Shown here: piece by piece, positions 13,526 to 32,690 of the stretch
Numbering within the stretch: the first letter of the stretch is position 1
Layout: the number at the start of each line of letters is the position of its first letter
Assembly (NCBI GenBank): GCA_958430865.1
Contig: CAUDNR010002569.1
Coordinates: 13,795 to 76,431, forward strand
DNA from: Entrophospora sp. SA101
Lineage: Eukaryota; Glomeromycota; Glomeromycetes; Entrophosporales; Entrophosporaceae
Direction: 5' to 3'
DNA length: 62,637 nt
The notes under the pieces: model-generated
Seen by the model: the letters and a program-made list of their open reading frames with translations, nothing else
Told to the model about the DNA's origin: nothing
Databases searched by the model: none
Translations under genes and position numbers: made by a program

Positions 13526-13527
13526 AG

Positions 13528-14316: not shown

Positions 14317-14560
14317 AAGAATATCAAGGTTGCCCGTTAGTTTCTCCTTGGGAAAATTTATGGGTAATATCTCTCACCCAAACACTTAACCTTCACCAAC
14401 CCCCTATTTTGGGGCATTGGGTATCATCACCAGTAGTGTCAAATCAGAGGTCTCAATTGTCATTCTCTTTATCTTTGTCTGTGAACTTTTGCTGACATTG
14501 GCTACACTGGAATTTGGTAATATTCAGGTTAGTGTCTTGGATTTTAGGGGAGGCTCCCAT
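14267..14560 (-). CDS. Small Cys-containing protein, 97 aa
   Basis: Start ATG 14560, fused by TAATG to the stop of the OB-fold-like gene and preceded by GGAGG, a good ribosome site on that transcript. It needs four TGA codons read as Trp (in NDNWDLWFD, GGWWRL and QPWYS). It carries C-x2-C (FQCSQCQQKF) and a later TQCP, so a zinc ribbon near residues 20-50 is likely. Not recognised further. The density of TGA Trp codons is good evidence for genetic code 4 here. Confidence 0.6.
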
Positions 14561-15216: not shown

Positions 15217-15259
15217 TTTGTTTTGCTTTTATAGACGAAATAAAGTTAAAAATTAAAAT

Positions 15260-15832
15260 ATGTTAATTACTAATGATTGGTGAGAAAAAAAAAGAAAAGA
15301 AGTAAAAAAAGCAGTAGGAGACAAGTTCCAACATGCTTCTCTGATGCAAACTACTGATGTTGAAAAAATTGTTCTCAACAGTGGAGTAAACCAAGCAATT
15401 ACTAGTCAGCAATATCTCGAAAGCACCGAAAAATTAATCCAACAAATCGGCCAAGGGCAAAAACCAGTTCGCACGCGAGCCAAAAAATCGGTGGTCTCTT
15501 TCAAATTGCGAGAAGGAATGCCGATTGGTTGCAAGTTAACTTTGCGGAAAAAAAGAGCCTGGCACTTTCTTTTTAATTTAATTAATCTTAGTCTGCCCCA
15601 AATTAAAAATTTTCGGGGTTTATCGAGGCAAAGTTTTGATCGTCAAGGAAATTATAATCTGGGAATCAATGATTTAAACATTTTTCCCGAAACTAGTTAT
15701 GATTTAACTTTTAAAAATCAAGGTTGCCAAATTACCATTGTTTTTACTTCTGCCAAAGTTGAGGAAAATAAATATTTTTTAGAGTTATTGCAGTTCCCTT
15801 TTCAAAGTGCCGAAACGACAGCAACAAGTTAG
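15260..15832 (+). CDS. rplE: 50S ribosomal protein uL5
   Basis: uL5 binds 5S rRNA in the central protuberance of the large subunit. Start ATG 15260 gives 190 residues (usual about 180); an internal ATG at 15344 would drop the N-terminal helix. Family sequence: VEKIVLNSGVNQAI, PVRTRAKKSVVSFKLREGMP, IGCKLTLR and NLGINDLNIFPE. Trp-8 is encoded by TGA. Unlike most bacteria it is not followed by S14: the gene stands alone, facing the OB-fold gene, and rpsN is 15 kb away. Its stop overlaps the convergent macro-domain gene by four bases. Confidence 0.93.
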
Positions 15833-16782
15833 ATAGATTTGTTTTTTAGCCTTTTGTTAAACTCCGTAATATGCTCCTTAATCTTTTTTTGAATTTTGCT
15901 TTTTCTTGAACCAGTTTTTTTAGCAATAAATCCGGAAAAACTTCCTGAACTAATAAATTCACCTTCCATATTGAGAGAATTAACAATTACTTCGCATTTA
16001 TGAGACGAATAATCAGTAATTGAATTATTTCCACAAAAGAGAATAGAAACTATACCCAGTTTTTTACGAAAATAACTTTCTGTTCCTATCTTTATGTTAA
16101 CTTCCATAAATGCCGTATTGCCAAAATCAACAAAAACAATTTTTTCTAAACTTTTTCTTTGTTCAACGGCTGATTTAATAATAATTTCAGCTAGTTTTAA
16201 TTGCTTTTCCTTTTTAGTTCCTTGGTTTGGAAAAATCCTGTCAAGAAAACTGCTTCCGACCAGACAAAAAGCAATGCTTTTATAGTTATTTTTTTCGGCT
16301 AAAATTATGGAATTTTGGACTGAATGAATAATTCCTTGAATATTTGGCTCAAATTCGGACCCCGCGTTTTTTTGAATTGCTCCGGGACAAGCATGAATAA
16401 TTGCTTTAATTCCTTGCTTTTCTAAATCACCTGAACCGGTTAAAATAGCAGAGCCACGTGGTAGCATATTAGCTTCAATCACTGCTTTTTTATATTCTGT
16501 CCCTGCTGAGGAAATTAATTTGTCTTGGTACTCCGCTTCATTTTTAATTGGCTGGTAATCGGTATTCGGCTTTCAATTTCCACTCCCCGGCGGAGAAGTA
16601 TTGTTTTCTTGATTTTCTGTCGTATTTGAAGGACTTTTTTCAATAACTTTGGCTGGCTTATCTTTGAAATGGCAAAAAAGAAAACAAATTAAAATAATGG
16701 CTAAGAAAAGAACAAAAAAAGATAAAAAAAATCTTTCAAGTGTTATTCTTTTTTCTTTCCCTGTTTGATAAAGAAAATTTAT
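15829..16782 (-). CDS. Membrane-anchored macro-domain protein
   Basis: Macro domains bind or remove ADP-ribose. The C-terminal 220 residues fit the fold: ANMLPRGSAILTGSGDL, IIHACPG, a helix with SVQNSIILAEKNNYKSIAF, and a later FVDFGNTAF. The usual NAAN motif is reduced to EANML. The frame is open upstream to 16782 and includes a hydrophobic segment (LSFFVLFLAIILICFLF) and a Pro/Gly/Asn linker (PPGSGNW, Trp by TGA), so the domain may sit outside or at the membrane. There is no in-frame ATG before 16482; a start in another frame with an A-run slip near 16750 is possible. Start therefore uncertain. Confidence 0.65.
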
Positions 16783-16824
16783 CTAATGTCATATCCAATT
16801 CTTAAATTATTTTTAGTATTAGTA

Positions 16825-17763
16825 TTAACTTATTAATTTGTCCAAATCAGCAACTAAATTATCTAGTTCCACCCATGCTTTTATTTTTGCTCCTGCGGCA
16901 AATTTATGTCCACCACCATTATATTTTTCGGCTATTTCACTGATAACATACTGGGAACTGCGAATACTTACTTTAATTAGTTCTTTTGCTTCTTCAATTG
17001 CCAACAATCAGATTTTAATCTCCTTGACATTAGCGAAAATATTAATTACTGATTTCGCTTCTAACCGGTTAATATTGTATTTTCTTAAAGTAGCAGCGGT
17101 GATTTTAAGAAAAGCCACTCCTGGCTTAGTTAAAATGAATTCTTTTAAAACATGACCTTTAAACTTTAAAAGATTGAGATTTTGTTGATAAAGATTGGTG
17201 CAAAGATAATTTGCGTCAGCCCCTTTTTGGAGCAGAAAAGAAGCAATTTGGAAAGTTCGCGAGGTAGTGTTGCTGTACAAAAATCTTCCTGAGTCAGTGA
17301 TTATTCCGAGCAAAAAAAAGTTAGCGGTCTTTTTGGAAACTTTTCAATTTGCTTTCATCGCTAATTCTCCTAACATTTCGCAAGTTGCTGCATAAGTTGG
17401 GTCTATTCATTCATAATCGGCATAGTTTTCTCCTTTGATGTGGTGATCGATTTTTATTTTTTCGGAAGCTAATTTTCAATGTTGACTATCTATTCTTTCC
17501 TGGCTGGCCGTATCACTGATTATTATTAAGGAGTTTTGGTAATCTCTTTTTTCTAACTGGTCGTTTTTTCCTAAAAAGCTGAGGCTGTCATTGTTTTTTC
17601 CATCCGTGAAAACTTTTTTTTCCGGAAAATTATCTTTAATTAATTGGGCTAACCCCATAGCTGAACCATAGGCATCCCCATCAGCATCGATATGGCGTAA
17701 ACAAATAATAGTAGAATGTTTTTTAATTTTCTTGGTTATTTTTTGGCAGGCTTCATTGGTCAT
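16825..17763 (-). CDS. nrnA: DHH phosphoesterase, NrnA/MgpA-like (nanoRNase / pAp phosphatase)
   Basis: Degrades short RNA oligonucleotides and dephosphorylates 3'-phosphoadenosine phosphate. With TGA as Trp the frame runs 312 residues from ATG 17763, the normal family length. Motifs in order: CLRHIDADGDAYGSAMGL (DHH motif I), ISDTAS (motif II), IDHH (motif III), GIITDSGRF (motif IV) and, in the DHHA1 part, YNGGGHKFAAGA. TGA-encoded Trp occurs after SQH, in YEW and ANW, and in IKIW. All metal ligands are present, so it should be active. No operon partner overlaps it. Confidence 0.92.
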
Positions 17764-17780
17764 TGATTATCTTTTTACAT

Positions 17781-17948
17781 TTAATGCTTAGTTTTTTTGG
17801 ATTTGGTTAGCCAATAAATTAAACCACTTACTCCGGCTAGAAAAACTACTCAAATTAGTCATTTTTTACTTGAATACTCTCTCTCTCTCTCTCTGTTTTT
17901 TTTGACCAGGTTATTAACACCAAAAAATTGAAAACTTATAGGCAGCAT
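17781..17948 (-). CDS. Small membrane protein carrying an in-frame GA repeat, 55 aa
   Basis: Start ATG 17948, stop TAA 17781. The frame is MLPISFQFFGVNN, then an Arg-Glu repeat encoded by the (AG)9 tract, then a Trp-rich transmembrane helix (KKWLIWVVFLAGVSGLIYW) and a Lys-rich end; two of the Trp are TGA. Loss or gain of AG units would change the frame before the helix. Unrecognised; the end resembles the C-terminal anchors of the coiled-coil proteins at 23.9 and 28.9 kb in layout. Confidence 0.5.
17877..17894. repeat. (CT)9 dinucleotide tract
   Basis: Nine CT units on the plus strand, lying inside the small membrane protein gene. It is the shortest of three GA/CT tracts in the bacterial block; the others are at 27116-27155 and 28339-28370. 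Confidence 0.9.
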
Positions 17949-17971
17949 AAATATAAAATTTATATTATCCC

Positions 17972-19261
17972 ATGGAAAAAACCAATAGCAATTTCACCAT
18001 TTCTCCTCTTCCTGCTCACAAAAAACCAAGAAAAAGCCGGGGCAAGTTAAAAAATGTTGCTTATTTAGCCAAAGATAACTTTTGAGCGGAAAATTTACCC
18101 GCTACGGCTAGTTCAAATTTTTTGCTGGATTTTGTGCCCGGTGAAAACGCCACAGTAATTCAATTATTAGCCAAAGAAGGAGCAATTTTCCAAGGAAAAA
18201 CGGCAATGGATGAATTTGCTTGCGGCGGCACAGGATTATTAGCTAATACTGGAATAATTACTAATCCGCATAATCCTCGGCATATTACCGGGGGTTCTTC
18301 TTCTGGTTCCGCAGAAGCAGTAGCCAGAGGCTTGGTTTCTTTTGCCTTAGGTAGTGATACCGGTGGTTCAGTGCGGCAACCAGCGGCTTATTGTGGAATA
18401 ATTGGTTTTAAGCCTTCTTACGGGTTAGTTTCTCGTTATGGACTTATTCCTATGGCTTCCTCTTTGGATACAGTGGGAATTTTGGCGAATTCTGTGGCTA
18501 CTACCAAGGAAGTTTTTGCGGTAATCGCCCAACCTGACCCTAATGACCTTTTAACTATTGCTGCTGAGCAAGCTAGAATTAAGCCAGTTTCTTTGACCAA
18601 AAAAATCGCTGTTTTAAAAGGCATAGAGAAACATTTGGCCCCGGAATTTGCTAGACTATACCAAAACACAATTGCTATTTTAAAAGGAAAAAATTATCAA
18701 GTGAAAACCATTGAGATTCCCCTGGAAATAAGGGACAATCTTCAACTTTGCTATTTAATTATTTGTTCGAGCGAGTTAGCCAGTCATTTAAATTCTTGCC
18801 AAGGAATAACTTACGGACAAAAAGTAAATAGTGCCAAGAATATTGGAGAAAAAGTGGGCCAAATGAGAACCGAATATTTAGGCAAATCAGTGCGGCAACG
18901 TTTGCTATTAGGTAGTTATTTTTTACAAAATAAACAAGGTTGCGAACAGGCTTATCTTTTTCGGCAAAAAGTAAAGAACTGAGCCGAAAAAATTTTTCGT
19001 CAATATGATTTTTTGCTTTTACCCAGCACGAATAGTGAAGCCCCAAAAATCGAACATAGTACTTTTTTTTTTACTGGTAGTGAAACGCATTGGAGCGATA
19101 ATTTACTACTTTTAGCCAGTTTGGGTGGCTTTCCTAGTTTAAGTTTGCCGATTGGCTTGGTGAATGGTCTGCCAGTAAGCATTAATATCAACGCTGCTTA
19201 TCAACAGGACAAACTATTATTTCAATTTGCTGAATTAATGGAAAAAAATACACTTGATTAG
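17972..19261 (+). CDS. gatA: Glu-tRNA(Gln)/Asp-tRNA(Asn) amidotransferase subunit A
   Basis: GatA is the amidase that supplies ammonia for converting Glu-tRNA(Gln) to Gln-tRNA(Gln) with GatB and GatC. Start ATG 17972, 429 residues. Signature: TAMDEFACGGTG, then ITGGSSSGSAEAVARG with the Ser-cisSer-Lys triad (Lys near residue 34, LAKDNF), and GSDTGGSVRQPAAYCGI. Trp codons TGA at 18083 and in VKNWAEK show code 4. It is about 50 residues shorter than typical GatA. The 200 bases after its stop hold only a weak frame. Confidence 0.95.
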
Positions 19262-19463
19262 AACTAAGCGTAGGAGAAGAATGTTTTTATGATTTACTTC
19301 CTGCAAATAAAAAAATCGGTATTGATATTGGCCGCAAAAAGCGAGAAGCGGAAAACCAACAACTAGCCCAAAAGCAAAGTAAGTTAAATGACCCTAACTT
19401 GGTTTTGATTACCATTCATACTTTTATCATATAAAAAAACTTGAACAAAGTAAAATTTTTAAT
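19262..19463 (+). other. Short unexplained frame between gatA and obgE
   Basis: A plus-strand frame without a clear start (ELSVGEECFYDLLPANKKIG and onward) is open to TAA 19432-19434 and overlaps the end of gatA. It could be a decayed small gene. I do not recognise it, and no ribosome site or ATG supports translation. Confidence 0.3.
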
Positions 19464-20747
19464 ATGAAATTCGTGGATGAAATTATTCTGACTACTAAAG
19501 CTGGTGAAGGTGGCAATGGTGCTGTTTCTTTTCGTCATGATTATCGTAATCCCAAAGCTGGTCCAGACGGAGGAAATGGTGGTAATGGCGGTCATGTCTA
19601 TTTTCAAGGGGATGAGCAAATAAATTCTTTTTTTTCGTTAAGCAGGAAAAAAGTTTGAGCAGCCGGTAATGGAGCCAACGGAGAAAATCAGTTAAAAACT
19701 GGCAAAAACGGAGAAAATATTTATATCAAAGTTCCCTTGGGCACAGTCATTAAATTAAGAGAAGAAAAACTTGCTTTTACCCAAATCAACAAGGAGTTAA
19801 TTCTTGGGGAAATTTTGTTTCCTCAACAAACATTATTAATTGCCAAAGGCGGAAAAGGTGGGTGCGGAAATGCCGCTTTTGCTTCTTCGGTTAATCGGGC
19901 TCCCCATTATGCCCAAAAGGGTAGTTTAGGAGAAAAAATTCAACTGCGACTAGAATTAAAAATTCTGGCTGACGTTGGCTTGTTAGGTTTGCCTAATGCT
20001 GGCAAAAGCACTTTAATCAACGCTTTAACTAAGGCCAAAGTAAGAACCGCGGATTTTCCTTTCACCACTCTCAATCCCCAATTAGGAGTTTTAGTCAAAG
20101 GAGAGCAAAGGATAACTATTGCTGATTTGCCCGGAATTATTGAAGGAGCAGCCCAAGGGAAAGGCTTAGGTTTACAATTTTTGCGGCACACCACGCACTG
20201 CTCCTTAATTATTTACGTTTTAGACGCCAACAAAGATAATCCTTGACAAGATTTAGACATTTTAGAAAAAGAATTAAAAAGCAGCGGAATTGCTGAACCC
20301 CAAAATAAGCAAAAAATAATTATTTGAAATAAAATTGACTTGCTTTCCCCAACAGAAAAAAAAAAATTACTAGAAAAAGTTCAACTTAAACTAAAAAACA
20401 AGAAGCATTTTTTTATCTCAGCAGCCCAAAAAACTAATTTAGGTTTATTAGTAAAAGAATTATTTAAATTAACCAAAAAAAGCCAAAAAACTACTCCTTT
20501 TTCTCTGCTCCATAAAATTTATGATTTTACGGTTCCCCTTGACTGGCAGATAACTTCCTTAAAACCCCATTATTGAAAACTGACCGGTTCTTTTATTGAG
20601 AACTTGAGCCAAAAATGTCACCACCAAGAAAAACTAATCCAAGAATTAAAAAAAACCAATCTCGGTGAATACTTTCGGCAAAAAGGAGTAAAAAGCAGCG
20701 ACGTAATAATTATCAATGACCAGGAGTTTTTTTGGCAATATGAATAA
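19464..20747 (+). CDS. obgE: Obg-family GTPase
   Basis: Ribosome-assembly GTPase. Start ATG 19464, 427 residues, full length. The glycine-rich Obg fold is clear (AGEGGNGAVSFRHDY, GPDGGNGGNGGHVYF, AKGGKGGCGNAAF), followed by the G domain: GLPNAGKST (G1), FPFTTLNPQLG (G2), ADLPGIIEGA (G3) and NKID (G4). The C-terminal OCT domain follows. Trp codons TGA occur after SRKKV, in NPWQD, IIIW and HYW. The stop overlaps a possible tiny gene by 8 bases. Confidence 0.95.
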
Positions 20748-20880
20748 TTTGGTGAAACTAGGAACTACCCTTGAAAGAGCAAAACGAGCCAAAACTCTCA
20801 AAAGCAATCTTTTTTGTAAACTAAAAATTATCACCATTATAACAAAAGCTGACCATCCTTCCAGCAAATTCAACTTTTAG
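20740..20880 (+). CDS. Possible small basic protein, 46 aa
   Basis: ATG 20740 overlaps the last codons of obgE (ATGAATAA), a common coupling layout, and runs to TAG 20880, overlapping the rpoA stop from the other strand by 4 bases. The product is Lys/Arg-rich (LERAKRAKTLKSNLF). No family recognised; it may be chance. Confidence 0.3.
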   Translation: MNNLVKLGTTLERAKRAKTLKSNLFCKLKIITIITKADHPSSKFNF

Positions 20881-21734
20881 TTGCTTTTTCCGACTGGCTT
20901 GGCTTTTTCTTGGCGTGGTTCAGAAGCAATTAACTGCCGAATGTTAAGCATAGACTGCTCTAAAAAGTTTATCACCGTTAGTAAACAATTGTTGGCGCTA
21001 ATGCTGCCATTAGTAGTAATTGTTAATTTTAAACTTTCCTCTTGCTTATCCAAGTCAACAATAACTGGTTCAACTTGTCAACTTACTGTTTTGACTGGAC
21101 AATAATCGCTATCGAGAAAAATCAGATTTTCTTCATTTTGGAGTTGAATTTCTTGTTTGTTATCGTCTTCTCCGTTGGAAGCATCGCTTTCATCTTTTTT
21201 TTTGTTCTCGAGGGAAAAAAATGATTTTTGTTCCTTGGCAGACCGGGAAACATAATGATAGGAGCAATACAAAGTAATTTTCAATTGGGCAGCAGGAGCA
21301 ACTGTCGCCAAATAAGTTTCGGGATTAAGGACAGTTAATTCTCCTTGGATATCCTTGCCAGTAACTACGTATTCTTCTTTACCTTGGGAATTATCAACGT
21401 TAATTTGTAAAGTGCAAATTTTTCCTTGGCGTAGATAATCCTCCGACGGGGATTGAAAAACTAATTTTTTGAGGTGGAAGTTCAAGTAAATAGGTATTTC
21501 TTTCACTCCTTCTAATTTAGCGATTTCGTTAGTAATGGTTTTTGCTTTATCACTGATTTTCACGGCAAAAATGGCTCAGCCAGGAACGCGCGTGAGTAAA
21601 AGTCGCCGGAAAGTATTTCCTCAGGTGGCCGCTAAACCAGTTTCTAAATGCTTAAAAACAAATTCGGTAGTCAGCGGAGATTTAATTGTTTTTTTGATTT
21701 CCATTGCTGGAAGGGGAAATAATTCTTGATTCAT
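20877..21734 (-). CDS. rpoA: RNA polymerase alpha subunit, C-terminal domain missing
   Basis: The alpha dimer is the scaffold of RNA polymerase. Start ATG 21734, 285 residues. The N-terminal domain is recognisable: TWGNTFRRLLLTRVPGWA (Trp by TGA), AITNEIAKLEGVKE-type dimer helix (KTITNEIAKLEGVKE), and the end SISANNCLLTVINFLEQSML. It then stops at ASEPRQEKAKPVGKSN, so the alpha-CTD, which usually contacts UP elements and activators, is absent. An acidic insertion (KKKDESDASNGEDDNK) sits in the middle. Lies downstream of rpsK in the usual alpha-operon order. Confidence 0.92.
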
Positions 21735-21738
21735 ATGT

Positions 21739-22149
21739 TTATTTACGGGGAGTTTTGCGGGGTCGACAACCATTGAAAGCCAGGGCAGTTTTGTCGACCA
21801 ATTTTTCTACTTGGAGACCAGCGGTATTACAAATTTTTTTGATTACGGCGTCCCGCCCACTGCCAATTCCCCAAACAATAATTTCGACTAACGAAATGCC
21901 AAATTCAGTTAGTTTTTCTAAGGCGGCTTCTGCGGCTTTTTGGGCAGCAAAAGGAGTAGATTTTTTGGTGCCCCGGTAGCCAGTGGCTGTGCGCGAACTA
22001 ACTTGTGCCAATTTGTCCCCGTTTGTTTGGGTGATGGTGATGATGAGGTTGTTGAAACTCGAATGGATATTCAAACAACCCCGACCACTCGGAATTTTTT
22101 TCACCTTTTTTACTTTTTTAGTTTTTTCTAAATTATCTTTTTTCATCAT
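21739..22149 (-). CDS. rpsK: 30S ribosomal protein uS11
   Basis: Platform protein near the Shine-Dalgarno helix. ATG 22149 (a second ATG follows directly), 136 residues. Conserved core: GCLNIHSSFNNLIITITQTN, WGIGSGRDAVIKK and the tail FNGCRPRKTPRK. The N-terminus is rich in Lys. Four bases separate it from rpoA and three from rpsM, so one transcript is expected. Confidence 0.95.
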   Translation of the reverse strand: MMKKDNLEKTKKVKKVKKIPSGRGCLNIHSSFNNLIITITQTNGDKLAQVSSRTATGYRGTKKSTPFAAQKAAEAALEKLTEFGISLVEIIVWGIGSGRDAVIKKICNTAGLQVEKLVDKTALAFNGCRPRKTPRK

Positions 22150-22152
22150 TGA

Positions 22153-22578
22153 TTATCCTTGCTGTGGAGCTTTTTTCTTGCCGGCAATCGCTAACCGCTG
22201 TTTAGTGATACTTGCTATTCCGTTTGGTCGGGTGCGATTATTATGCCGCGTAGGCTGACCCCGGACTTTTTTACCCATGGAATGCAGCCGACCTTGTAGA
22301 CAATTGATCCGAATTTTTTCTTCAATATTCTGCTTTTTAATTTGTTTCAAATCTCCTTCTACTTCAAATTGTTGAATCTCGTGATTAATTAAATTAATTT
22401 GCTCGTCAGTTAGGTCTTTGGCTTTCAAGAAAGGATTAATGTTTAATTTTTCGAGAATTTGCCGAGCCCGGGACTTTTTTTTAAACTTTTTGCCAATTCC
22501 GTAAATACCACTTAAAGCCACATAAATATTTTTCCGGGTGAGAATATTAACATTACTAATCCGAATTGTCCGAACCAT
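22153..22578 (-). CDS. rpsM: 30S ribosomal protein uS13
   Basis: Head protein contacting the P-site tRNA and the large subunit. Start ATG 22578, 141 residues, slightly longer than usual. Begins MVRTIRISNVNI and has the helix-two-turns-helix GIYGIGKKFKKKSRARQIL and LQGRLHSMGKKVRGQPTRH. The next part is NNRTRPNGIAS, where most bacteria have RTRTNARTRKG, a small local divergence. Second gene of the rpmJ-rpsM-rpsK-rpoA string. Confidence 0.94.
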   Translation of the reverse strand: MVRTIRISNVNILTRKNIYVALSGIYGIGKKFKKKSRARQILEKLNINPFLKAKDLTDEQINLINHEIQQFEVEGDLKQIKKQNIEEKIRINCLQGRLHSMGKKVRGQPTRHNNRTRPNGIASITKQRLAIAGKKKAPQQG

Positions 22579-22593
22579 ATATATTTATTTTTA

Positions 22594-22713
22594 CTAACCT
22601 TGCTTTTGTTTATGCTTAGGATTAGCTTTACAAATAACTCGTAAAACCCCTCTCCGGCGCACAAATTGGCAACCTTTTTTACAAATTTTTTCGACAGAAC
22701 TACGCACTTTCAT
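22594..22713 (-). CDS. rpmJ: 50S ribosomal protein bL36
   Basis: Small zinc-type ribosomal protein, 39 residues from ATG 22713. [20 protein letters not shown] followed by [18 protein letters not shown] is the bL36 pattern, with Cys at C-x3-C and a later Cys-x4-His, the normal zinc set (the first pair has one extra residue). Starts the alpha-operon order seen in most bacteria. Confidence 0.93.
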
Positions 22714-22784
22714 ATATTATTATTTTTGTTCTTTCAACTGAGCCAAAAGGTGAAAAAAGTTTTTCTCTCCCAGCAAACTAATTT

Positions 22785-22940
22785 CTACTTGCCCCGACTA
22801 ATCATCACCAAAGTAATAATTAACTGAATAATCGCGATAACCGTATTAAGCACAATACTTCAAACAGTTAATTCTTCTTTTCAATTGACTAATTCCTTAG
22901 TAGGTTTGGCCAGTTTTTTGGGTAATTTCTTTTTTGGCAT
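22785..22940 (-). CDS. secE: SecE-like small membrane protein, 51 aa
   Basis: Start ATG 22940. A basic N-terminus (MPKKKLPKKLAKPTKELVNW) leads into KEELTVW, then one transmembrane helix (VLNTVIAIIQLIITLVMI). SecE, the clamp of the SecYEG channel, has this size and the Trp-containing amphipathic helix before a single membrane span. Both Trp are TGA codons. SecE more often neighbours nusG than rpmJ, so the name is probable and not certain. Confidence 0.55.
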
Positions 22941-23201
22941 AATTAATTTTAGTTTTGAATTATATATAATAATTATTTTTGTTGTTTTGATCATAAATTT
23001 TTATTGATTGATTAACTCGGCTATAATTATTCAAAATACTTTCTCGTAGAATCGATATTAAACAAAAAATTAGTTGAGAAAAGAAAAAAACAACTTTTAA
23101 GGAGAGGGAAGAATAAACCAAAAAAAATAATTACGCCAACCAAAAACAAAAAGAATTATTTAATTATTGAGCAACAAACAATAAACATTAAAACAATATA
23201 T

Positions 23202-23423
23202 ATGAAAACATTAAGCATTAGTATTCAAGACAAAACTTATCAAGAGTTAAAACAACAAATAGGCTCCGGACAAATTAGCCAGTTAGTGGACAAATTAATT
23301 ACGGAAGAGCTAAGCCGAAGAAAACAAAAGTTAATTGCGGGCTACAAAAGAGTTGCCAAAAGCCAAGCAATGAAAAAAGAAGCCAAAGTTTGGGAAGGAG
23401 CCATTGAAGATGGCATTAACTAA
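23202..23423 (+). CDS. Antitoxin-like ribbon-helix-helix protein
   Basis: Start ATG 23202, 73 residues. KTLSISIQDKTYQELKQQI and SGQISQLVDKLITEELS resemble the beta strand plus two helices of ribbon-helix-helix antitoxins such as MazE9/CopG types, which bind DNA and neutralise the partner. It overlaps the downstream MazF-like gene by 14 bases, the usual antitoxin-first order, so the pair is probably autoregulated. The 260 bases upstream, divergent to secE, should hold the promoter. Confidence 0.75.
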   Translation: MKTLSISIQDKTYQELKQQIGSGQISQLVDKLITEELSRRKQKLIAGYKRVAKSQAMKKEAKVWEGAIEDGIN

Positions 23424-23847
23424 GCCTAATTTTCCCCACCGAGGAGAAATTCATTGAGTTGATTATAATTATAAAACCCAGCGGGGAGGAGAAATCAAAA
23501 AGACCCGTCCTTCTTTGGTGGTGAGTAATGATACCCAGAATGAATTTGACGACCAGATTATTGTGGCCCCTTTAACTACGGAGGAAGCGGAGCCGACCGA
23601 AGACTTTGAGGTGTTTATTGCTAACTCTCCGGATAATGGCTTAGAAAAACCAAGCAAGATTCTTTTAAATCGTTTACAAACCATTGACAAAGTGGTCCGT
23701 CTAAAAGGACTGGTAGGAAAAGTTAGTTTGGAAATCAAGCAACAAGTAAATAAAGCTTTGAAATTAGTTTTGGCTTTTTGGAATAAGATTAAGATACAAA
23801 CTACTAGAATTAGTAAATTAGTGTTAAATGGAGGAGGCAAATATTAA
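23410..23847 (+). CDS. MazF/PemK-type endoribonuclease, toxin of a toxin-antitoxin pair
   Basis: Family members cut mRNA at short sites and slow growth when the antitoxin decays. Start ATG 23410, 145 residues, with one TGA to be read as Trp in the first beta strand. Family signature: a G-E-I-x-W strand near residue 14, the KKTRPSLVVSND strand-loop near residue 35, and a strand with VAPLT near residue 58. The C-terminus is longer than usual. Convergent with the coiled-coil gene, 8 bases apart. Description from sequence only; activity not shown. Confidence 0.82.
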
Positions 23848-23855
23848 CCAACCAA

Positions 23856-26800
23856 CTATTGCTTACTCTTGCTTCCACCAATAATTTTTGATTTCATCAA
23901 CAATCCCCCAACAGTTAGCAAACTAGCCACTAAGCAACTAATTAAAATAATTCTTTCTTGGTTTGGCTGGGGAATTAATTCTTTTTGCGTTTGACTAATC
24001 ACCGGCAAAGATTGAACATTTTGTTTTTGCTCTAAATGTTTTTGAATGAAGGCTTGTCGGGCACTAACTACTTGCTGATAACTAGTTGCTTGGGTAATTT
24101 GTTGTTTAATAGCACTGTCTACTGTTTGGTTAAATAATTGCTCTAAACTTTCTAATTCTAGTTGTTTAATTACCGCTAAATCTTCCCCGAAAGGAGTAAG
24201 TTCTTTTTCGAGTTTAGTAATAGTTTGGTTAGCTTGGTTTAATTCTTGTTCTAAACTTTCAATAGTGCTATTATCAGTAATGGTAATTGGGTCTTGTTTA
24301 ATTAACTGTTGAATTCGGTTAATAACTTTTTTTAAATTAGGTTCTGGGAGGTTGAGGTTTAAATCGCGATTAAGTTCGTCAATGATTTTTTGTTCCTTAT
24401 TGGCTAATTGAACTTGGTAGTTTTCGTTTTCAGATTCAAGTTTTTCAGCCCGAATTTTTCAATTTTCTAATTCTTGCTGAGTAGGGCGGTTATCTCTTTC
24501 TCTTTCTCTTTCTGCTTGCTGTTTATCCTCGTTAGCCTTGGCGATTTGCTGTTGTCAATTAGAAGGAACAGCGTGTAATTTAGTTTTAGTTTGTTTGTGG
24601 CTTTCTTTTTCTGCTCTTATAATAATCTGAACAATCGCTGTTAGGGAATTGTTTACCCGTGTATTTAAATCGGTTTGACTAGTAGCATTTTGTAAATAAT
24701 TTTGTCAGGTATGACTGGTGTTAACAATATGTCCATTATCCTGTAATTGTTTTTTTAATTGAGAATGGTTAATACTATTAGCAGTAAGTAAAGTATTTAT
24801 TCGGTCAATGTGATTTTGACAACTATTATTATAGAAATTAACCAAATCAACTAGACTTTTCCCTGTATTATTACTTGGAAAATTATTAAAGTTATTTATT
24901 CCCAAAATGGTTTGAAGGTAATTCTCGTAGTTAGTGAGTTTGCTCTGCGTCGTGTTTAGTTCGCTTTTGACTGTGGCAAGGTTAAGTTCTTTCTCTTGGA
25001 CTTTGGCTTCTTGCTCTTTGGCTTTGTCCTCGGCCGTTCGCTTGTCGGTTTCCGCTTGCTCTTGGGCTTTTAGGGCTTGCTCGGCTTCTTTCACGGCCGC
25101 TTCCATTCGCTTGATTTCTTCTTTTGCTGTGTTTAAATCATTCGCATTGGCTTCATAATCTTTCTTTTCTTTCTCCAATTCAGCAGTTTTTAATTCCAAA
25201 GACTCTTGGGTTTCTTGTAGTTCAATTCTTACTAAATTAGCGGCTTCTGCTTCCCTATAAATTTCCGCTTCTTTTCTCGCAAGTTCCTCACTAATATTTT
25301 TATTTTCTGCCCCTAATCTACTTACTCTTTCTTCTAATTCTTTAATCAGTTCTTTTCTCTCATTAATTTCATGTTCATCAACATTAAAATCAGTTGGTTT
25401 TTGGTCTCTTGCTGATTGAGAAGTTTGTATAAGTGATTGAATTTGTTCTTTCATTTCCTCAATTCTTCTTTCGTATCTTGTTCTTTGTTCTTCTAATCGA
25501 GAAGTCGTGCTCGGTGCCTTAGAAAGAGCGACAGAACCAGCAGGCTTTACTGTTGCTTTAATTTTCTTGTATTCCTGACTAATCCAGTTAGAATTAAGCA
25601 AGGAGGAGGAGTTTGAGTTAGTCCTTTTCCTAGTAGAAGCTGAAAGGTTGTCATTAAATTTACTTGTTGGTTGCTCTTCTTCAACTGTGTCAAGGCTGAT
25701 TTGTGGTGCTATTAATTTGTTTGCTTCATCTATTTGTTTTTGCTTATACGATAATTCATCTCTTAATGCGTCAATTCTATTCTGCTTCTGAATATTTTCG
25801 TTGGTTAGGGCTTCGTTTTCTTTTATTTTGCGTAATTGTTCACTTTCTAAATTTCTTATCTCATTTTCTTTGGCTGCTAACTGGGATCTTAAATCGTCAA
25901 TCAACGGAAAATAATCGAGTTTTTCCTCTTCACTATCAGTATTTAGACCAGTATATACACTATCAGAAGTGTCTTGCCTTTGGTGTGTTGGTCTTTCGTT
26001 ACTCTTCTTACTCTCGTCGCTTATTTGGGGAGAGGAGGGAAAAAAACTCTTGTTTTCAACTGGACTGTCAAGGAACCTTTTCGCTTCCGTAAACAAATTT
26101 CCTCTAATATTTTCGGAAGAACTAGTGGAAACTCTATGAAGACGAAAACTGGTGTTTGAAATCAGGGAATTACGGCGGGATTGGTTAGCTAATTGTTCTT
26201 CTAATTCGCGGTTTATTCTTTGATAGGATTTAAGGCTTTTTACTAATTCTTTAACTTGGTCTTTATTATAAACTTTCGGGGTGCCTCCTCGCTCGTTATC
26301 AGTTTCTGTATCACTAATAATTACCTGTTCTTCCTGCTTTCTTATTTCTAATTCCTTGCTTTTATTGGCGAAATTTTGCTCTAATTCTCTCGTATAATTA
26401 GCTAATTCCGCATGACTATACTTAGTCTAGCAATTTCTTGCTCGTATCCTTCGCTTTGGCGCCGTAAGTTTTCAACTTCATTCGCATTTTGTAACGCTAA
26501 CTGGTTAAAATCATTTTCACTTTTCGTTATTTTCGCTTCTAGTTCTTCAACTTTTTTTTCTAATTCTAATTCTTTACGACTACTTGACTCATTGATTAAT
26601 TGAATTGTTTCATTTTCTTTCTGGGTTAAGAGTTTATTGATTGTCTCTAAGGCGTTTTTAGCTTCATTAGTTTCGCGTCGTAATTGGCTTGCTTCTCTAT
26701 CTTTTTCTTCAACGACCCTATTCAATTCTTCAATATCAGCGATTAGACGAGAAATTTCTCTTTTGTCTGCGTTAATTTGCCGTTCTGGCATTTTTTTAAC

Positions 26801-27114
26801 CACTTCTCGCTCTTGCTTTAATTCTTCTTCATTTGAAGCAATTCGTTCTTTTAAGGCGTTAATTTCTTCCTTTAATGTCTGGTTTTCTCTTGTAAGTTCT
26901 ACATTCTGTTCATTTAATCATACCCCGTTTTGGATAAGTGTAATTATTTTTTCTTTGTCTGTGAGTCCTTCGAATGATTCAGCTTGCTGAACCCCAAGAT
27001 CTTTATCTTCTCCTTCGTTGAAAAACTGTAAATCTAATTTAAATCAGCCCCGTGGTGGGATACTGAATTTCGCGGCTGTGGCGGTGTCCGTTTCGTGGTG
27101 GGAGGCTGAATTTT

Positions 27115-27158
<44 letters not shown>

Positions 27159-27226
27159 ATTGCTAGACAAAGAACTTTTGTTTTGAGAAGTTGAGGAAGA
27201 ATGGGATTGCTGGCAATTAGCAGCAT
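23856..27226 (-). CDS. Long coiled-coil protein with C-terminal membrane anchor (frame broken once)
   Basis: Reading TGA as Trp, one frame is open from TAG 23856 up to about 26425: heptad-rich Glu/Lys/Gln helices, a Ser/Thr-rich stretch (STRKRTNSNSSSLLNSNW), and a C-terminal transmembrane segment (RIILISCLVASLLTVGGLL) with a basic tail. At about 26405 the frame ends upstream in TAG, and the coiled coil continues in the next frame (EVENLRRQSEGYEQEIARL) back to the (AG)20 tract and, in that frame, to ATG 27226. A one-base shift, real or a sequence error, joins the two parts. Total about 1100 residues. Likely anchored in the cytoplasmic membrane. Unrecognised; see the tract and N-terminal module entries. 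Confidence 0.65.
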
Positions 27227-27514
27227 GTTCTTTTATTTCTTCGGTTTGGTCTCCGTGGCCGTTAGATTTAATTATTTTGATTACGGCTTGGCAGGAGGGG
27301 CATTTTTCGAAGTTGTAGTTATGACCTCCTGTTTCGGGATGCCTTACTTCGTCTTTTCTGTCTCTATTTCCTTGGTTAGGACAAAACCTAAACTCAAATT
27401 TTGATAACTCTTTTTTCTTTTAACTTCCCAATCTTCACATTCAGCTAAGTTTTCTTTTAATCATTCCTGACAGTCAGAACAATTATTATTTATGCACTTT
27501 ATTTTCTCATTCAT
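27039..27514 (-). CDS. Zinc-finger N-terminal module entering the GA tract
   Basis: ATG 27514 opens MNEKIKCINNNCSDCQEW (Trp by TGA). At a six-T run (27411-27416) a one-base slip is needed to continue as KFEFRFCPNQGN, HPETGGHNYNFEKCPSCQ and EHAANCQQSHSSS, giving two Cys/His clusters. The frame enters the (AG)20 tract as an Arg-Glu repeat and, with 20 units, ends 24 codons later at TAA 27039. With 18 or 21 units it would run straight into the coiled-coil body. It looks like the front of a longer protein whose joining depends on repeat number. Function unknown. Confidence 0.5.
27116..27155. repeat. (CT)20 tract, left arm of an inverted pair
   Basis: Twenty CT units on the plus strand, preceded by AATTTTG. 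With 28339-28375, (AG)16 followed by CAAAATT, it forms an inverted repeat of about 39 bases. On the minus strand it is read as an Arg-Glu repeat in all frames, so length changes never create a stop inside it but move the downstream frame by two bases per unit. Confidence 0.95.
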
Positions 27515-27555
27515 AATATTATAATTTTAGTTCTGACCTATCAGGATTGTTTTTT

Positions 27556-27879
27556 TTAATGGCAATCAGGGCAAATTCCATGTAAGCCGTCAGTAAACAC
27601 TTCTATTCCCACATGAGCATCAAGTTCCGGTCAAAAAATAGTTCTGCCATCCCAAACTTCATATTTTTCTAATTGTTTAGGTTTAACATTTTTATGTCCT
27701 CATTTGGCAAACCAGTCGGTGGGAATACTGGTTTTTCGACCATCATCCAAGAAAGCAGTTATTTCTGATTTGCTTATTTCCAGTTTCAAAATACGCGGGT
27801 GTTGGCAAGTTTCTTTCCGGACTGCTTTTAGTTTTGCCGGCTTTCTTATTTCTCGTTCAATTTCTCTTAACCTTGTCAT
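27556..27879 (-). CDS. DUF2442-like protein, 107 aa
   Basis: Partner of the upstream DUF4160 gene. ATG 27879 follows that gene's stop by 7 bases; an upstream TTG in the same frame is less likely. The family core is visible: ILKLEISKSEITAFLDDGR, TDWFAKWGH and WDGRTIFWPELDAHVGIE, matching the DUF2442 pattern of a strand with F-x-DG and a late I-x-W...D. Two Trp are TGA. DUF2442/DUF4160 pairs are widespread, often beside mobile elements, and have been proposed as toxin-antitoxin-like; the role is not established. Confidence 0.75.
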
Positions 27880-27886
27880 AATATTA

Positions 27887-28138
27887 TTAACTATTTTTAA
27901 CCTCTTCTCACTTATCAAGATATTTTGCTTTTCTTTCTTTGACTATTTGATAAAGTCTGCTTTTTTCTCCCTGGGGAAAGTTTTTAGGTTTTTTGCTTTT
28001 TAGCCGTAAAGGAGAAAGATAGTATTGGATTTCTTTCCCGTGTCCCCAAATGTGGATATGAGGTTCTTTGCCAAGCATTTTGGGCTCTCCTTCTTTGAAG
28101 TAGAAAATATAGCCATATTCTCGGTCGACAGTTGTCAT
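27887..28138 (-). CDS. DUF4160 protein, 83 aa
   Basis: ATG 28138, stop TAA 27887 after one TGA Trp (DKWEEVKNS). MTTVDREYGYIFYFKEGEP and KEPHIHIWGHGKEI fit DUF4160, which opens with a strand, Tyr/Phe-rich turn and E-P-x-H-x-H. It is followed directly by DUF2442, the common order. Both genes l lie between the inverted GA/CT tracts. Confidence 0.78.
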
Positions 28139-28149
28139 TATGGTTATTT

Positions 28150-28335
28150 TTAATCAGCATCATCATCGTCAGGGTCAAAGGGGTCGGGGTCAGAAGGGTC
28201 AGGGACAAAATCAGGCTCAGGAGTGGGGTCGTTTTCTCCGGGTTCAGGGACATTTACTTCGGGGTCAGAGAGAGGGATTTCGGTTTCTCCTCCGCTGCCA
28301 GGAGGTGGATTTCAGTCGAGTTGATTAAAAGCAAA

Positions 28336-28371
<36 letters not shown>

Positions 28372-28497
28372 AAAATTAAAGATAGAAATTCCTCCTCCGT
28401 GCCGGAGGTGTAAATGGCAAGACACTACTACTCCTAGTGCTAATAAGCAATTTAATTGAAATATTGACCCTAAAAAGCAAAATCCCTCCTTAGCCAC
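28150..28497 (-). CDS. Acidic Pro/Asp-rich C-terminal module, start uncertain
   Basis: The frame ends in PDPSDPDPFDPDDDDAD before TAA 28150, 12 bases upstream of the DUF4160 start, and contains NPPPGSGGETEIPLSDPE (Trp before it by TGA). Upstream it passes through the CT tract as a Leu-Ser repeat to ATG 28497, but that part lies antisense to a coiled-coil gene and is probably not native. The acidic part (28150-28338) looks real; like the coiled-coil genes it is joined to the tract and may be the back half of a protein whose front is elsewhere. Confidence 0.4.
28339..28370. repeat. (AG)16 tract, right arm of the inverted pair
   Basis: Sixteen AG units on the plus strand followed by CAAAATT, the reverse complement of the left arm's AATTTTG(CT)n. 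The outer flanks match for 7 bases beyond the tract; the inner flanks do not. The 1.18 kb between the arms carries the zinc-finger module, DUF2442, DUF4160 and the acidic module. Confidence 0.95.
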
Positions 28498-28910
28498 CGA
28501 ATTAAAGCATCTTAAAGAAGCCTATGAGGAATTTCAAGACCAAACTCAACAAAAAATATTAGAACTAAAAGGACAAATAAACTGATACGACCAACAAAAC
28601 ACCTTGCTAGAAAACCAATTAGAAGCATTCAAAGAAAACGAGGAGCATTTGTTGAACCTGATTGATTATTTACAAAACGAATGAGAAAAAAAAGAAAATC
28701 ATTATATTGAAGCAGAAGAATTTCAACTAGAAAGATTAAATAATTGTTGCCAAGCAGAATTTAAATAGTTTAGCGGTGGTTAATCCGCCAAAAGAAATAA
28801 TTCAGCCAGCAAATAAGGAAAGAATTATTTGAATTGGCTTGTTATTGACTGCTTTATTAACGATTGGTGGATTGCTGGTAAAAGTGGCAAAAAGGAAAGG
28901 TAAAAACTAG
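28371..28910 (+). CDS. Second coiled-coil body with membrane anchor, no start codon
   Basis: Begins at the right GA tract: KLKIEIPPPCRRCKWQD (C-x2-C), a coiled coil (ELKHLKEAYEEFQDQTQQ and ENQLEAFKENEEHLLNLI), then after a one-base shift near 28760 NKERIIWIGLLLTALLTIG and GLLVKVAKRKGKN to TAG 28910. Four TGA codons are read as Trp. No ATG precedes it in frame before the tract, and upstream across the tract the frame is open but without ATG to 28154. The anchor resembles that of the left body (ERII-I--L---LLT-GGLL-K). It appears to be a silent back half waiting for a front. Confidence 0.6.
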
Positions 28911-28933
28911 TTTTAAATGATTGATTAATAATT

Positions 28934-30568
28934 TTATAATAAATACTCGGGGTGAGAGGTAATTATTTTGGTAATATCTTTTTTTCGTTTCAGGAGAGTT
29001 AAAATTTTTTCGTCAATTGTCCCTTTGCAAACTAAATCAATAATTAAGCGAGTTTTGGGGTTTTCGCTCTCTTTGGTGGGTAAAAAACGGGCTTCGGCTT
29101 GTTCGTTGTCGGCCGGGGAATAACTGCGGTCGGCGAAAACAGCAATATCGGCTTGACTTAAATTTAGTCCCAGACCTGCACTTTGGATATTACAGAGCAA
29201 AATTTTAATTTTTTGTTGCTGAAAATCGTTAATGAATTCAATTCTTTGCTGGTGAGGAATTTTACCAGTAAGCAAAGCTACTTTTAGTTTTTTTTCTTGT
29301 AAAGCCTGGGCTAAGGGTTCCAAAAAGGTTTCGGTACGGGTAGAAAAAATGAGTAAACTTTGTTGCGAGTTGGTTTGACAAAAATTGACTAAATAAGCAA
29401 TTTTGCTCCCTGGACAATCTTTCAATGATTTTCGGTCTTCTTCGGTCAGAAAATCTTTTTTGTCTCTTTCCTCGTGAATCAAAGCCGGAGGGAATAAAGT
29501 TAAAGTTTTGAGTTTAGCCAGAAACTGCAAGGGATAATTTTTGTCTCATTTTTGGGTTCAGCGGGAATAAAGCAATTGCTGTTTTTTTTCCATCAATAAT
29601 TTTATTTCTTGTTGCTCAATTAAAGGCAATCAGGGCAAAACTTCTTTTTGTTTGCGGGCAACGGAGATTTGGTTCAAGCGCCTTTGTAATTCTTGGCTCA
29701 TTCTTTCATTTTTGAAGCCTAAAACTCTTTTAATTTTGAAAGCTCTTGGTGCTTTGGGGATTTCTGTTTCCTTCACTCAAAAAAACTCTTCGGCAAATTT
29801 TCAATAGGAAGCATAAATTTCTGGTTGGAGAAACTTTAAAATGCCAAAAATGTCGCTCGAATGATTAACTACTGGCGTTCCAGTTAGCGCCATTTTGTAC
29901 TCACTGTCTTTTAAGGTGTAAATACTTTTGCTTTGTTGAGATTGATAATTTCTTAAATAATGAGCCTCATCAATCAGTGAACAAAAAGTCGGTTTTTTAT
30001 TTTTTCGCAGGTTCCGAAAATATTTGCTGTCAATTTTAAAAATATCTTTGGAAACGATAATAATTCAATTTTTTTCTTGACAAAATTTTTGGTAAATAGT
30101 TTGTCGTTCAGTTAAAGACAAATAACTAAGCAGATAGGCCGGTTGGTTTAATCAATTTTCCACGGCTTCTTGTCATTGGGCTTGGAGAATGCTGGGACAA
30201 ATAATGACTAAATTAGGAACTTTTCAACGTTGAAAAATTGCCAAAGCCGTAGGAGTTTTTCCGGTTCGCATTTCGTTAAAAATGCCAATATTTTTTTGCT
30301 GGCTGAGAAAATTGACGTCTTTTTCTTGGTAAGGTCTTAATTTAAAGTCGGTTTTTTTTACTTGCCATTCCCCAGAAGGGAAGACATAATCAGAAAGTAT
30401 TTTTTTTAGTTTACGAAAATTAAGCAGATTTTTTGCCAGGTAATAACTTTGGGCCTTGCCATTGTACTCAGCATTTAAACAAACCGCCCAACTGTAATTA
30501 GTTTTCAAAAAAATTTTGTCATTTTCAATCTGGGTAATTTCAATTTTCAATTCGGGTAATTGAGGCAT
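28934..30568 (-). CDS. SNF2-type DEAH helicase/ATPase
   Basis: Swi2/Snf2-family ATPase that would move on double-stranded DNA. ATG 30568, 544 residues with many TGA Trp. Motifs: Q-like LRPYQEKDVNFL, I FNEMRTGKTPTAL, Ia VIICP, II SLIDEAHYLRN, III MALTGTPVVNHS, IV LLIFSTRTETF, V CNIQSAGLGLNLSQAD and VI DNEQAEARFLP (where most have an Arg-Gln pair). It lacks the long accessory domains of host-restriction or chromatin enzymes. Standalone SNF2 proteins like this are frequent in Mollicutes and phages. A decayed copy of its C-terminal half is at 353-481 in the fungal part. Confidence 0.9.
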
Positions 30569-30745
30569 TAATTTATATCAACTCAAAACTTTAAACTTCG
30601 ATTTTTTCCTTAATCTAAAACAAATTCAGAGATAGTTTTAAGTTTCCTTTTTTGGTCTATATTATAATTTTAGGTGTTTGATATATCGGCGGATGATTGC
30701 TAAAAATAATAAATAAAATTTGCAAAAAGACGTAAAAATAACAAT

Positions 30746-30931
30746 ATGGCCAGAAAAGCACTAATTGAGAAAGCCAAAAAGACACCCAGATTTGCGGTGA
30801 GAAAATATACCCGTTGCTTGCAATGTGGTCGCTCTCGGGCGGTTTTTCGTAACTATTTACTCTGTCGAATTCATTTTCGCGAGTGAGTTTACAAAGGCTG
30901 AGTACCAGGCTTTAAAAAACTTTCTTGGTAG
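30746..30931 (+). CDS. rpsN: 30S ribosomal protein uS14 (zinc type)
   Basis: Start ATG 30746, 61 residues. [20 protein letters not shown], then [19 protein letters not shown] and CRIHFREWVYKGWVPGFKK. In this type the zinc ligands are normally C-x2-C and C-x2-C; here the fourth is His (CRIH), a conservative zinc ligand. Two Trp are TGA. It is separated from rplE, its usual upstream neighbour, by 15 kb. The 240 bases after it contain no recognised gene. Confidence 0.93.
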
Positions 30932-31168
30932 ACAAAAATAAACTAATTTTTAGCAAATTTCTCTATCTGAAAACAGTCCATAATGCCGAGAATAGGGGGA
31001 TTATTATCGTCTAAGCACTAGGTTAATTTATAGGTTTGTTTATTTTATAAGGCATAATAGCAAGCGTTTATTAATACTACTATAATTTCTACTTCACTAT
31101 CTAATTGGGAATTAATACTTTTCTAATTAAATCATCGGTGATTAACTTGGTGATTAATTCTCTTCCGG

Positions 31169-31284
31169 TTAGATTATTTTCTTTTTTTTGCCATATAGAT
31201 AAAAATCAAAAAGAAAAAGTAAAAATATTAATAATAAGAAACCTTGTTTCGCTAAAATCTGCTTAATTAACTTGCGCCCATAGT
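31169..31284 (-). CDS. C-terminal end of a membrane protein, cut by the gap
   Basis: The minus-strand frame enters from the N gap and ends in a hydrophobic helix (GFLLLIFLLFLFDFYLY) with a Lys-rich tail and TAA 31169. It is the far end of a gene whose rest lies in the unsequenced part. The longer X-filled frames across the gap are artefacts. Confidence 0.45.
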
Positions 31285-32479: not shown

Positions 32480-32600
32480 AAAACTTGTATAATATATATA
32501 TATATATATATATAGGTAGATAGATATATATATATATAGAGAGCCAAAAAATATATTACTTACATAAATTATAAATATATATATGCTCTATGCTTTTAGA
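32480..32600. repeat. TA / GATA microsatellite
   Basis: (TA)n, TAGGTAGATAGATA and TATATATATATATAGAGAG runs. The second copy of the duplicated block begins inside this same repeat, right after the gap at 45881, so assembly of both copies broke here. Confidence 0.85.
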
Positions 32601-32690
32601 CGCACTCTATTATTATTAAGATATAGTAACAGTTCATTTATTGAGAAAAAGAAACTCGCATTAAATTTTTACGATAAAAATTTTTCAATA

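What the first reader, a model, noticed from the sequence alone, without database searches (positions are those of the whole stretch)
27109..28375. Possible invertible switch: inverted GA/CT tracts joining one front to two alternative coiled-coil bodies
AATTTTG(CT)20 and (AG)16CAAAATT form an inverted repeat around 1.2 kb. The inner segment carries a zinc-finger N-terminal module reading out through the left arm into a coiled-coil body. Outside the right arm, on the other strand, lies a second coiled-coil body with a related membrane anchor and no start codon. Inversion would swap bodies: with (AG)20 or (AG)17 the module reads in frame into the right body, and with (AG)18 or (AG)21 into the left. 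This is the layout of a phase-variable surface protein locus; I know of no such system described for these endobacteria.
Basis: partly seen in the sequence, partly recalled or inferred. Interest (0 to 1): 0.9.

Follow-up and report, generated by a model that had tools for sequence, protein, structure and literature searches.

The report
Slippery joints in modular endosymbiont proteins
In bacteria that likely live inside a soil fungus, runs of repeated AG letters sit at the joint between front and back halves of many different proteins, and changes in run length would likely switch each protein between a membrane-anchored and a cut-short form; the two runs found here face each other, but nothing shows that the DNA between them flips.

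Summary
The window is a chimeric scaffold of the fungus Entrophospora sp. SA101 holding an 18.5-kb contig of a TGA=Trp, mollicute-type bacterium. The tracts are not special to this locus. I read all 34 listed tracts whose AG strand ends in C. Of 33 counted (right arm left out), 16 join a front ORF (>=45 aa) to a back ORF (>=60 aa): 8 in frame, 8 not. Homologous backs carry unrelated fronts: 27 back pairs, 9 front pairs, 3 shared. Proteins from other public data show the same joint; one reads such a back out of frame. I conclude C-terminal phase variation by slippage: in frame, the front would be anchored; out of frame, it ends in a short tail. The inversion switch is unsupported: one orientation, no recombinase nearby, a right arm that is a rearrangement scar, three further frameshifts, and such a pair arises by chance in 29-36% of placements.

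The parts
12782..31284 (.). Bacterial contig (18,503 b, TGA=Trp) lying between a 10-N and a 1000-N gap in a fungal scaffold
   Evidence: N runs; uS11, uS13, RpoA, ObgE, GatA-like amidase, NrnA; the matching NCBI protein lies on an 18,503-b contig of Entrophospora sp. SA101; fungal COG4 outside it
27109..27155 (-). Left arm: AATTTTG + (CT)20; on the coding (-) strand (AG)20CAAAATT, reads (RE)n
28338..28377 (+). Right arm: (GA)16.5 + CAAAATT, in front of the right body on the + strand
27156..27514 (-). Front module with Cys pairs (predicted zinc binding), ATG at 27512-27514; split by a frameshift at A6 about 27404-27422
   Evidence: weak CEP104_ZnF match below the Pfam cut-off; upstream leader 87% identical over 62 bp to C743; DWE-type motif shared with P0002 and P0022
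23856..27115 (-). Left back: coiled-coil body with an L27-like KLDLQFFN motif near its start and a C-terminal hydrophobic anchor; frame break at 26402-26426
   Evidence: N-terminal stretch homologous to the C1178:35691 back (64% over 28 aa)
28371..28910 (+). Right back: coiled-coil body with C-terminal hydrophobic anchor, no ATG of its own upstream; frame break about 28740-28768
   Evidence: homologous to L098:5054-6319 (34% over 155 aa), which follows ATG(GA)7 in C1799
28150..28337 (-). Severed C-terminal acidic Pro-rich tail of a longer gene; homology to C743 stops at 28329, next to the right tract
   Evidence: 85% identity over 122 bp to C743; relatives listed
27887..28138 (-). DUF4160 gene
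   Evidence: Pfam PF13711, 26.4 bits against cut-off 23
27556..27879 (-). DUF2442 gene
   Evidence: Pfam PF10387, 32.9 bits against cut-off 23.9

Best explanation
The two tracts belong to a genome-wide set of (AG)nC(AAA) joints that link front modules to back modules in many bacterial proteins, and slippage of the AG run is predicted to switch each protein by frame. Shown: the same kind of joint at many loci, homologous backs behind unrelated fronts, one long frame after the tract and two short ones, mixed in-frame and out-of-frame states. Inferred: the tract gains or loses AG units during replication. In frame, the front (often Cys-rich, predicted zinc binding) continues through (RE)n into a back that often ends in a hydrophobic anchor with a basic tail, so it would be held at the membrane. 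Out of frame, the front would still be made but stops after a short tail and would be released. This is C-terminal phase variation; where the tract directly follows an ATG it would be ordinary ON/OFF translation switching. At this locus the tract is out of frame for the left body. The inverted second tract belongs to a neighbouring back whose upstream part was replaced by a rearrangement; inversion is not needed to explain it.
For: All 34 listed tracts whose AG strand is followed by C (of 75) were read: CAAA follows 21 of 34. Of the 33 counted (the window's right arm was left out, its upstream ORF being antisense to another gene) 16 have a front ORF >=45 aa and a back ORF >=60 aa, 8 in the same frame and 8 not; after the tract the best frame is 178.5 aa (median) against 20 and 8. 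Among 31 loci or proteins with both parts, at blastp E <= 1e-3, 27 back pairs and 9 front pairs are homologous, 3 in both. C295 and C1178:87314 backs are 70% identical over 108 aa while their fronts give no hit to each other. Other public data: P0015, P0020 (JGI) and P0022 (Logan) are front-(RE)n-back; P0003 and P0013 (Logan) carry the same back type behind two different fronts without an (RE)n run, so the swap is no assembly join at a repeat. P0006 has the C295 type of front, (RE)n, then a 16-aa tail that best matches the out-of-frame readings of two B1 backs (scores 60 and 50, next 25, among 49 tracts in three frames). 13 of 23 backs listed from the assembly have a 19-aa hydrophobic segment ending within 15 aa of the C-terminus. 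Published genomes of this group are reduced in mismatch repair (PMC10507103, passages), which favours slippage (inference).
Against: No reads were available, so length change within a population is unseen. 8 of 16 in frame does not differ from the one third expected of random lengths (p 0.19), and one of the 8 called out of frame (C780:4218) is ambiguous, since a second upstream frame of 98 aa is in phase. 17 of the 33 counted lack a clear front or back at these limits. The tract is not needed for the back: of 11 matches to the B1 back in the assembly only 3 adjoin one of the 34 tracts, and P0003 and P0013 lack it. SA101 DNA was MDA-amplified from nuclei (PMC6987183, passages), and amplification can itself alter dinucleotide runs. 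P0006 and C295 are different lineages, not one strain in two states. Zinc binding, membrane anchoring and the side faced are predictions; the one model was of low confidence (pTM 0.26). This locus has three further frameshifts and may be decayed.
Confidence: 0.7

Rival explanations
1. Invertible switch: recombination between the two arms flips the 1.2-kb segment so that the module is joined to the left or the right body.
For: 40-nt perfect inverted repeat; at the present n=20 the module would read 132 aa into the right body; both bodies are followed by C-terminal hydrophobic segments.
Against: Module and right body found once each, one orientation only. The arms are of a tract class present at 34 listed places. 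Chance of at least one such close inverted pair 0.29-0.36. No recombinase nearby among the 19 ORFs scanned; endobacteria of this group are reduced in homologous recombination genes (PMC10507103, passages). Both bodies and the module are frame-broken.
Confidence: 0.1
2. Artefact: the inverted arrangement is an MDA chimera or a wrong join at the repeats, and the true locus is front-(AG)n-left body with the right body elsewhere.
For: SA101 was sequenced from single nuclei by MDA, with several assemblers merged and scaffolding by Chromosemble (PMC6987183, passages; that the window comes from this work is inferred from the strain name); the scaffold is chimeric; the right arm abuts a severed gene; some contigs begin or end at such tracts.
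Against: A severed tail also occurs elsewhere (C743:12342). A chimera should leave one flank in two contexts; the module and the right body have no second identical copy. The fusions P0003 and P0013, which lack the repeat, show that module exchange is real.
Confidence: 0.3
3. Decayed locus: a former front-tract-body gene and its neighbour now drifting as pseudogenes, the tracts merely relics.
For: Three frameshifts besides the tract frame in this locus, while the uS11, uS13, ObgE, NrnA and SNF2-helicase ORFs in the same contig match their families within one open frame.
Against: At 8 of 16 loci front and back are in frame and long. The family-wide pattern does not depend on this copy, and pure dinucleotide tracts of 33-40 nt are unlikely to last without renewal (inference).
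Confidence: 0.4

Closest known systems
C-terminal phase variation by simple repeats (Helicobacter canadensis, PMC2823697; abstract and passages)
   Same: A repeat within the reading frame changes the C-terminus, not whether the protein is made
   Different: There: homopolymers near the 3' end, in most cases changing a few residues. Here: an AG dinucleotide run in mid-gene that adds or removes a whole coiled coil and anchor, at many loci with exchanged modules
CT-repeat phase-variable outer-membrane genes of Helicobacter pylori (babB and relatives; recalled, search listing only)
   Same: CT/AG dinucleotide slippage in a paralogous surface gene family
   Different: There the tract lies at the 5' end (recalled); here it mostly joins two domains
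Mollicute contingency genes and PARCEL modules (PMC2996958, passages)
   Same: Mollicutes; variable-number repeats with membrane-protein genes; modules embedded in different frameworks
   Different: There the dinucleotide tracts are in the 5' flank and the module is a 25-residue repeat; here the tract is the coding joint
Invertible surface-protein loci of mycoplasmas (vsa, vpma, vsp; recalled; a paper on their tyrosine recombinase stands in the reference list of PMC10507103)
   Same: One front with alternative bodies is the model proposed
   Different: No recombinase nearby, no second orientation, arms are microsatellites

Membership tests
Simple-sequence contingency (phase-variable) locus | Pure repeat tract inside a coding frame, far longer than chance | tested here: met
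   40 and 33 nt against a maximum of 14 in 300 shuffles
Simple-sequence contingency (phase-variable) locus | Unit gain or loss changes the reading frame and the product | tested here: met
   By sequence:
Simple-sequence contingency (phase-variable) locus | Same locus seen in both states | tested here: inconclusive
   C295 in frame against metagenome P0006 out of frame, but different lineages
Simple-sequence contingency (phase-variable) locus | Length heterogeneity within a population | not testable with these tools
   no reads
C-terminal phase variation | Tract inside the frame, so that a length change alters only what follows it | tested here: met
   By sequence: front ORF runs into the tract and the two off frames close after median 20 and 8 aa
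C-terminal phase variation | Both protein forms are expressed | not testable with these tools
   no expression data
Recombinase-driven invertible surface locus | Dedicated recombinase gene in or next to the locus | tested here: not met
   19 ORFs of the contig scanned; only a Xer-type ORF at 12710-13525, about 13.6 kb away
Recombinase-driven invertible surface locus | Both orientations found | tested here: not met
   One orientation in the assembly; reads not available
Recombinase-driven invertible surface locus | Specific recombination sites | tested here: not met
   Arms are (AG)nCAAAATT, of a tract class listed at 34 places
Recombinase-driven invertible surface locus | Intact alternative bodies | tested here: not met
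   Frame breaks at 26402-26426 and 28740-28768

The most novel reading that the evidence does not exclude
The (AG)nCAAA tracts are at once frame switches and exchange joints. Endobacteria of arbuscular mycorrhizal fungi keep a combinatorial stock of Cys-rich fronts and coiled-coil, membrane-anchored backs, recombine them through the shared tract (at this locus by inversion), and set each one to anchored or released by slippage, giving a phase-variable interface with the fungal cytoplasm.
Probability: 0.25. Interest if true: 0.85.

Novelty: new variant of a known kind. Interest (0 to 1): 0.62.

Why it matters
Endobacteria of this group are uncultured (recalled), and what they show to the fungal host is an open question. 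At least 16 tract-joined front/back loci in one fungal assembly, with relatives in other public data, name concrete candidates for that interface and make a clear prediction: tract lengths should differ between cells or spores. It would also be an unusual case in which the slipping repeat is the domain boundary, so that slippage decides whether a protein is anchored or released. I found no report of phase variation in these bacteria, within these limits: a search for endobacteria + Glomeromycota + phase variation gave one paper, a Ureaplasma review, seen as a listing; the 12 papers listed of 1,242 are on other organisms; 'phase vari' does not occur in the main text of PMC10507103. Two papers on these genomes, of 2015 and 2016, were not held.

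Tried and rejected
Related genomes: a scan of the genome-contig collection with the SNF2 helicase gave only two distant clostridial matches, no endobacterium. The IMG/VR scan for (AG)8CAAAW gave 2 contigs, neither of this kind. The alignment search in IMG/VR was not possible. Structure: low confidence (pTM 0.26), so no fold search was made; only the helical reading of the (RE)n stretch (within helix 271-355) is mentioned, as a prediction. Xer-mediated inversion was set aside for want of a recombinase nearby and of site-like arms. A selection test by excess of in-frame tracts was negative (8 of 16, p 0.19). Synteny (right-body homologue next to rpsM in C1799) was not used as proof of swapping, because the lineages are too diverged (uS13 42%).

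Not read: 26 of the other 41 tracts (those whose AG strand is not followed by C); 15 of the 41 were read. Tracts that begin with TC on the CT strand are not in the list (for example C72:39763 and two more on C458; L098:3629-3662), and tracts under 19 nt were not listed either. Left out of the in-frame counts: the window's right arm (with it, 17 loci, 8 in frame, 9 not).

Full report
What the window is. The window is part of scaffold C1387 of a 101-Mb assembly. Between a 10-N gap (12772-12781) and a 1000-N gap (31285-32284) lies an 18,503-b piece that reads as a bacterium with TGA=Trp and encodes uS11, uS13, RpoA, ObgE, NrnA, a GatA-like amidase, a macro-domain protein and a SNF2 helicase. Outside it lies a fungal-type COG4 gene. 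The left-body protein matches an NCBI entry of Entrophospora sp. SA101 on a contig of exactly 18,503 b. A strain SA101 (then Claroideoglomus claroideum/luteum) was sequenced from MDA-amplified single nuclei and scaffolded with Chromosemble (PMC6987183, passages only); that this window comes from that work is inferred from the strain name, and it would explain the chimeric scaffold. That the bacterium is a mycoplasma-related endobacterium is inferred from host, code and gene content; no 16S gene was examined. Of 7 uS11 matches in the assembly three are on contigs taken as bacterial (C1387, C748, C1799; two of them with an in-frame TGA), the other four taken as host genes, so several bacterial lineages seem to be present.

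The observation. Both arms are real, with 40 nt of perfect inverted repeat, and far beyond chance. The module, however, is split by a frameshift at a run of six A, and both bodies are split before their hydrophobic anchors, so no tract length alone gives a full anchored protein in this assembly.

The tract is a genome-wide joint. One search lists 75 GA/CT tracts of 19 nt or more that start with CT on the CT strand. I read all 34 whose AG strand is followed by C (32 plus the two window arms) and 15 of the other 41. CAAA follows 21 of the 34. In the count of frames the window's right arm was left out, because its upstream ORF is antisense to another gene. Of the remaining 33, 16 have a front ORF of at least 45 aa running into the tract and a back ORF of at least 60 aa leaving it; 8 are in the same frame and 8 are not (C780:4218, counted as not, is ambiguous: a second upstream frame of 98 aa is in phase). 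With a back limit of 30 aa the figures are 21 loci, 10 in frame and 11 not. Neither differs from one third (p 0.19 and 0.17). After the tract one frame is long (median 178.5 aa for the 16) and the others short (20 and 8). In some loci the tract directly follows an ATG (C544:3896 in frame, C295:30037 out of frame; C1799:13279 with (GA)7, out of frame).

Fronts and backs assort separately. Among 31 loci or proteins with both parts, 27 pairs have homologous backs, 9 have homologous fronts, 3 have both (blastp, E <= 1e-3, low-complexity filter on). Some back pairs are short, and coiled coils and anchors can match loosely, so the 27 are an upper figure. The B1 back (coiled coil plus anchor) follows different fronts in C295, C1178:87314 and C1992; B2 backs, linked through P0017, occur in C743, C1178:17221 and C1908; the B3 back in C792 and C295:30037. 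The start of the window's left body matches the back of C1178:35691 (64% over 28 aa), which is in frame with a front of its own that gives no hit to the window's module. The tract is not obligatory: of 11 matches to the B1 back in the assembly, 3 adjoin one of the 34 tracts. Thirteen of 23 backs listed from the assembly have a strong hydrophobic segment ending within 15 aa of the C-terminus, followed by a short, mostly basic tail; three of the other ten run off the end of the fetched stretch. Several, not all, fronts are rich in Cys pairs, which I read as predicted zinc binding.

Other data. Searching with the C295 protein gave 14 hits, among them entries from Funneliformis geosporum and Ambispora gerdemannii assemblies and from JGI, ENA and Logan data. 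P0015 and P0020 (JGI) and P0022 (Logan) are front-(RE)n-back proteins. P0003 and P0013 (Logan) carry B1 backs behind two different fronts with no (RE)n run, so the swapping of fronts is not a misjoin at a repeat. P0006 (JGI, Logan, ENA) has the C295 type of front, then (RE)n, then INFNLNNPNYLLKSCN; among 49 tracts in three frames the best matches to this tail are the out-of-frame readings of the C1178:87314 and C295 B1 backs (scores 60 and 50, next 25). This is the best evidence that the same kind of joint exists in both phases, though in different lineages and from protein letters only. Several NCBI gene models leave the tract out, as if it were an intron (P0004, P0005 against L011).

The right arm. 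On the minus strand the right arm is followed by the acidic, Pro-rich C-terminal tail of a gene that is longer in C743 and C555; homology to C743 stops at 28329, beside the tract. A second severed tail lies at C743:12342-12434, followed, as read by eye, by DUF4160- and DUF2442-like frames and by the leader of a front gene (34 bp, 97% identical to the window). On the plus strand the arm belongs to the right body, whose homologue in C1799 starts after ATG(GA)7 directly before rpsM, rpsK and rpoA. So the right arm marks a rearrangement, real or introduced by amplification, that removed the first part of one gene and whatever stood before the right body.

Inversion. Nothing shows it. Module and right body occur once. 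One close inverted pair among 34 tracts is expected in 29-36% of random placements, taking whole contigs as available. The only recombinase among the 19 ORFs scanned is about 13.6 kb away at the contig edge.

How it likely works. Replication slippage changes n (inferred). The front would be translated either way. In frame, it continues through a charged (RE)n stretch, helical in a low-confidence model, into the coiled coil and the anchor; out of frame it ends after a short tail. The reduced mismatch repair reported for this group (PMC10507103, passages) would favour slippage. Which way the proteins face is unknown.

Verdict. The inverted pair is probably incidental; the joint is the finding. 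Mechanistically it is a known kind (simple-repeat phase variation, C-terminal type) in a new arrangement and, as far as my limited searches show, a new group of organisms.

Noticed in passing
12772-12781, 31285-32284: The bacterial contig is scaffolded into fungal sequence; NCBI carries bacterial genes as fungal gene models that skip stretches (P0001, P0004, P0005).
   Followed up: yes
32513-44909 and 45882-58270: A 12.4-kb direct duplication, 99% identical, in the AT-rich part taken as fungal, next to a 10-N gap: tandem duplication or unmerged haplotypes.
   Followed up: no
12710-13525: Xer-type tyrosine recombinase ORF running over the contig edge.
   Followed up: no
27556-28138; L100: DUF4160 and DUF2442 neighbours, resembling a toxin-antitoxin pair (recalled), seem to recur beside a severed acidic tail in C743 (the latter by eye).
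   Followed up: partly
about 27017-27043: The left body and its C1178 relative carry KLDLQFFN/A, like the L27 and phage motif cut by the Prp protease (recalled); Prp-family genes occur at 4 places in the assembly. It could cut the front from the body.
   Followed up: partly
G000 C458, C923: Contigs C458 (both ends) and C923 (one end) begin or end at or within about 100 b of AG tracts, as if assembly broke at variable or repeated joints.
   Followed up: no
L084:9628-9648: An IMG/VR contig carries (AG)12 inside a long open frame that looks like a DNA methyltransferase (DPPY motif, recalled), possibly phase variable.
   Followed up: no
23335-23847: MazF-like ORF (27.1 bits, under the cut-off of 120) on the opposite strand, next to the left body.
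   Followed up: no
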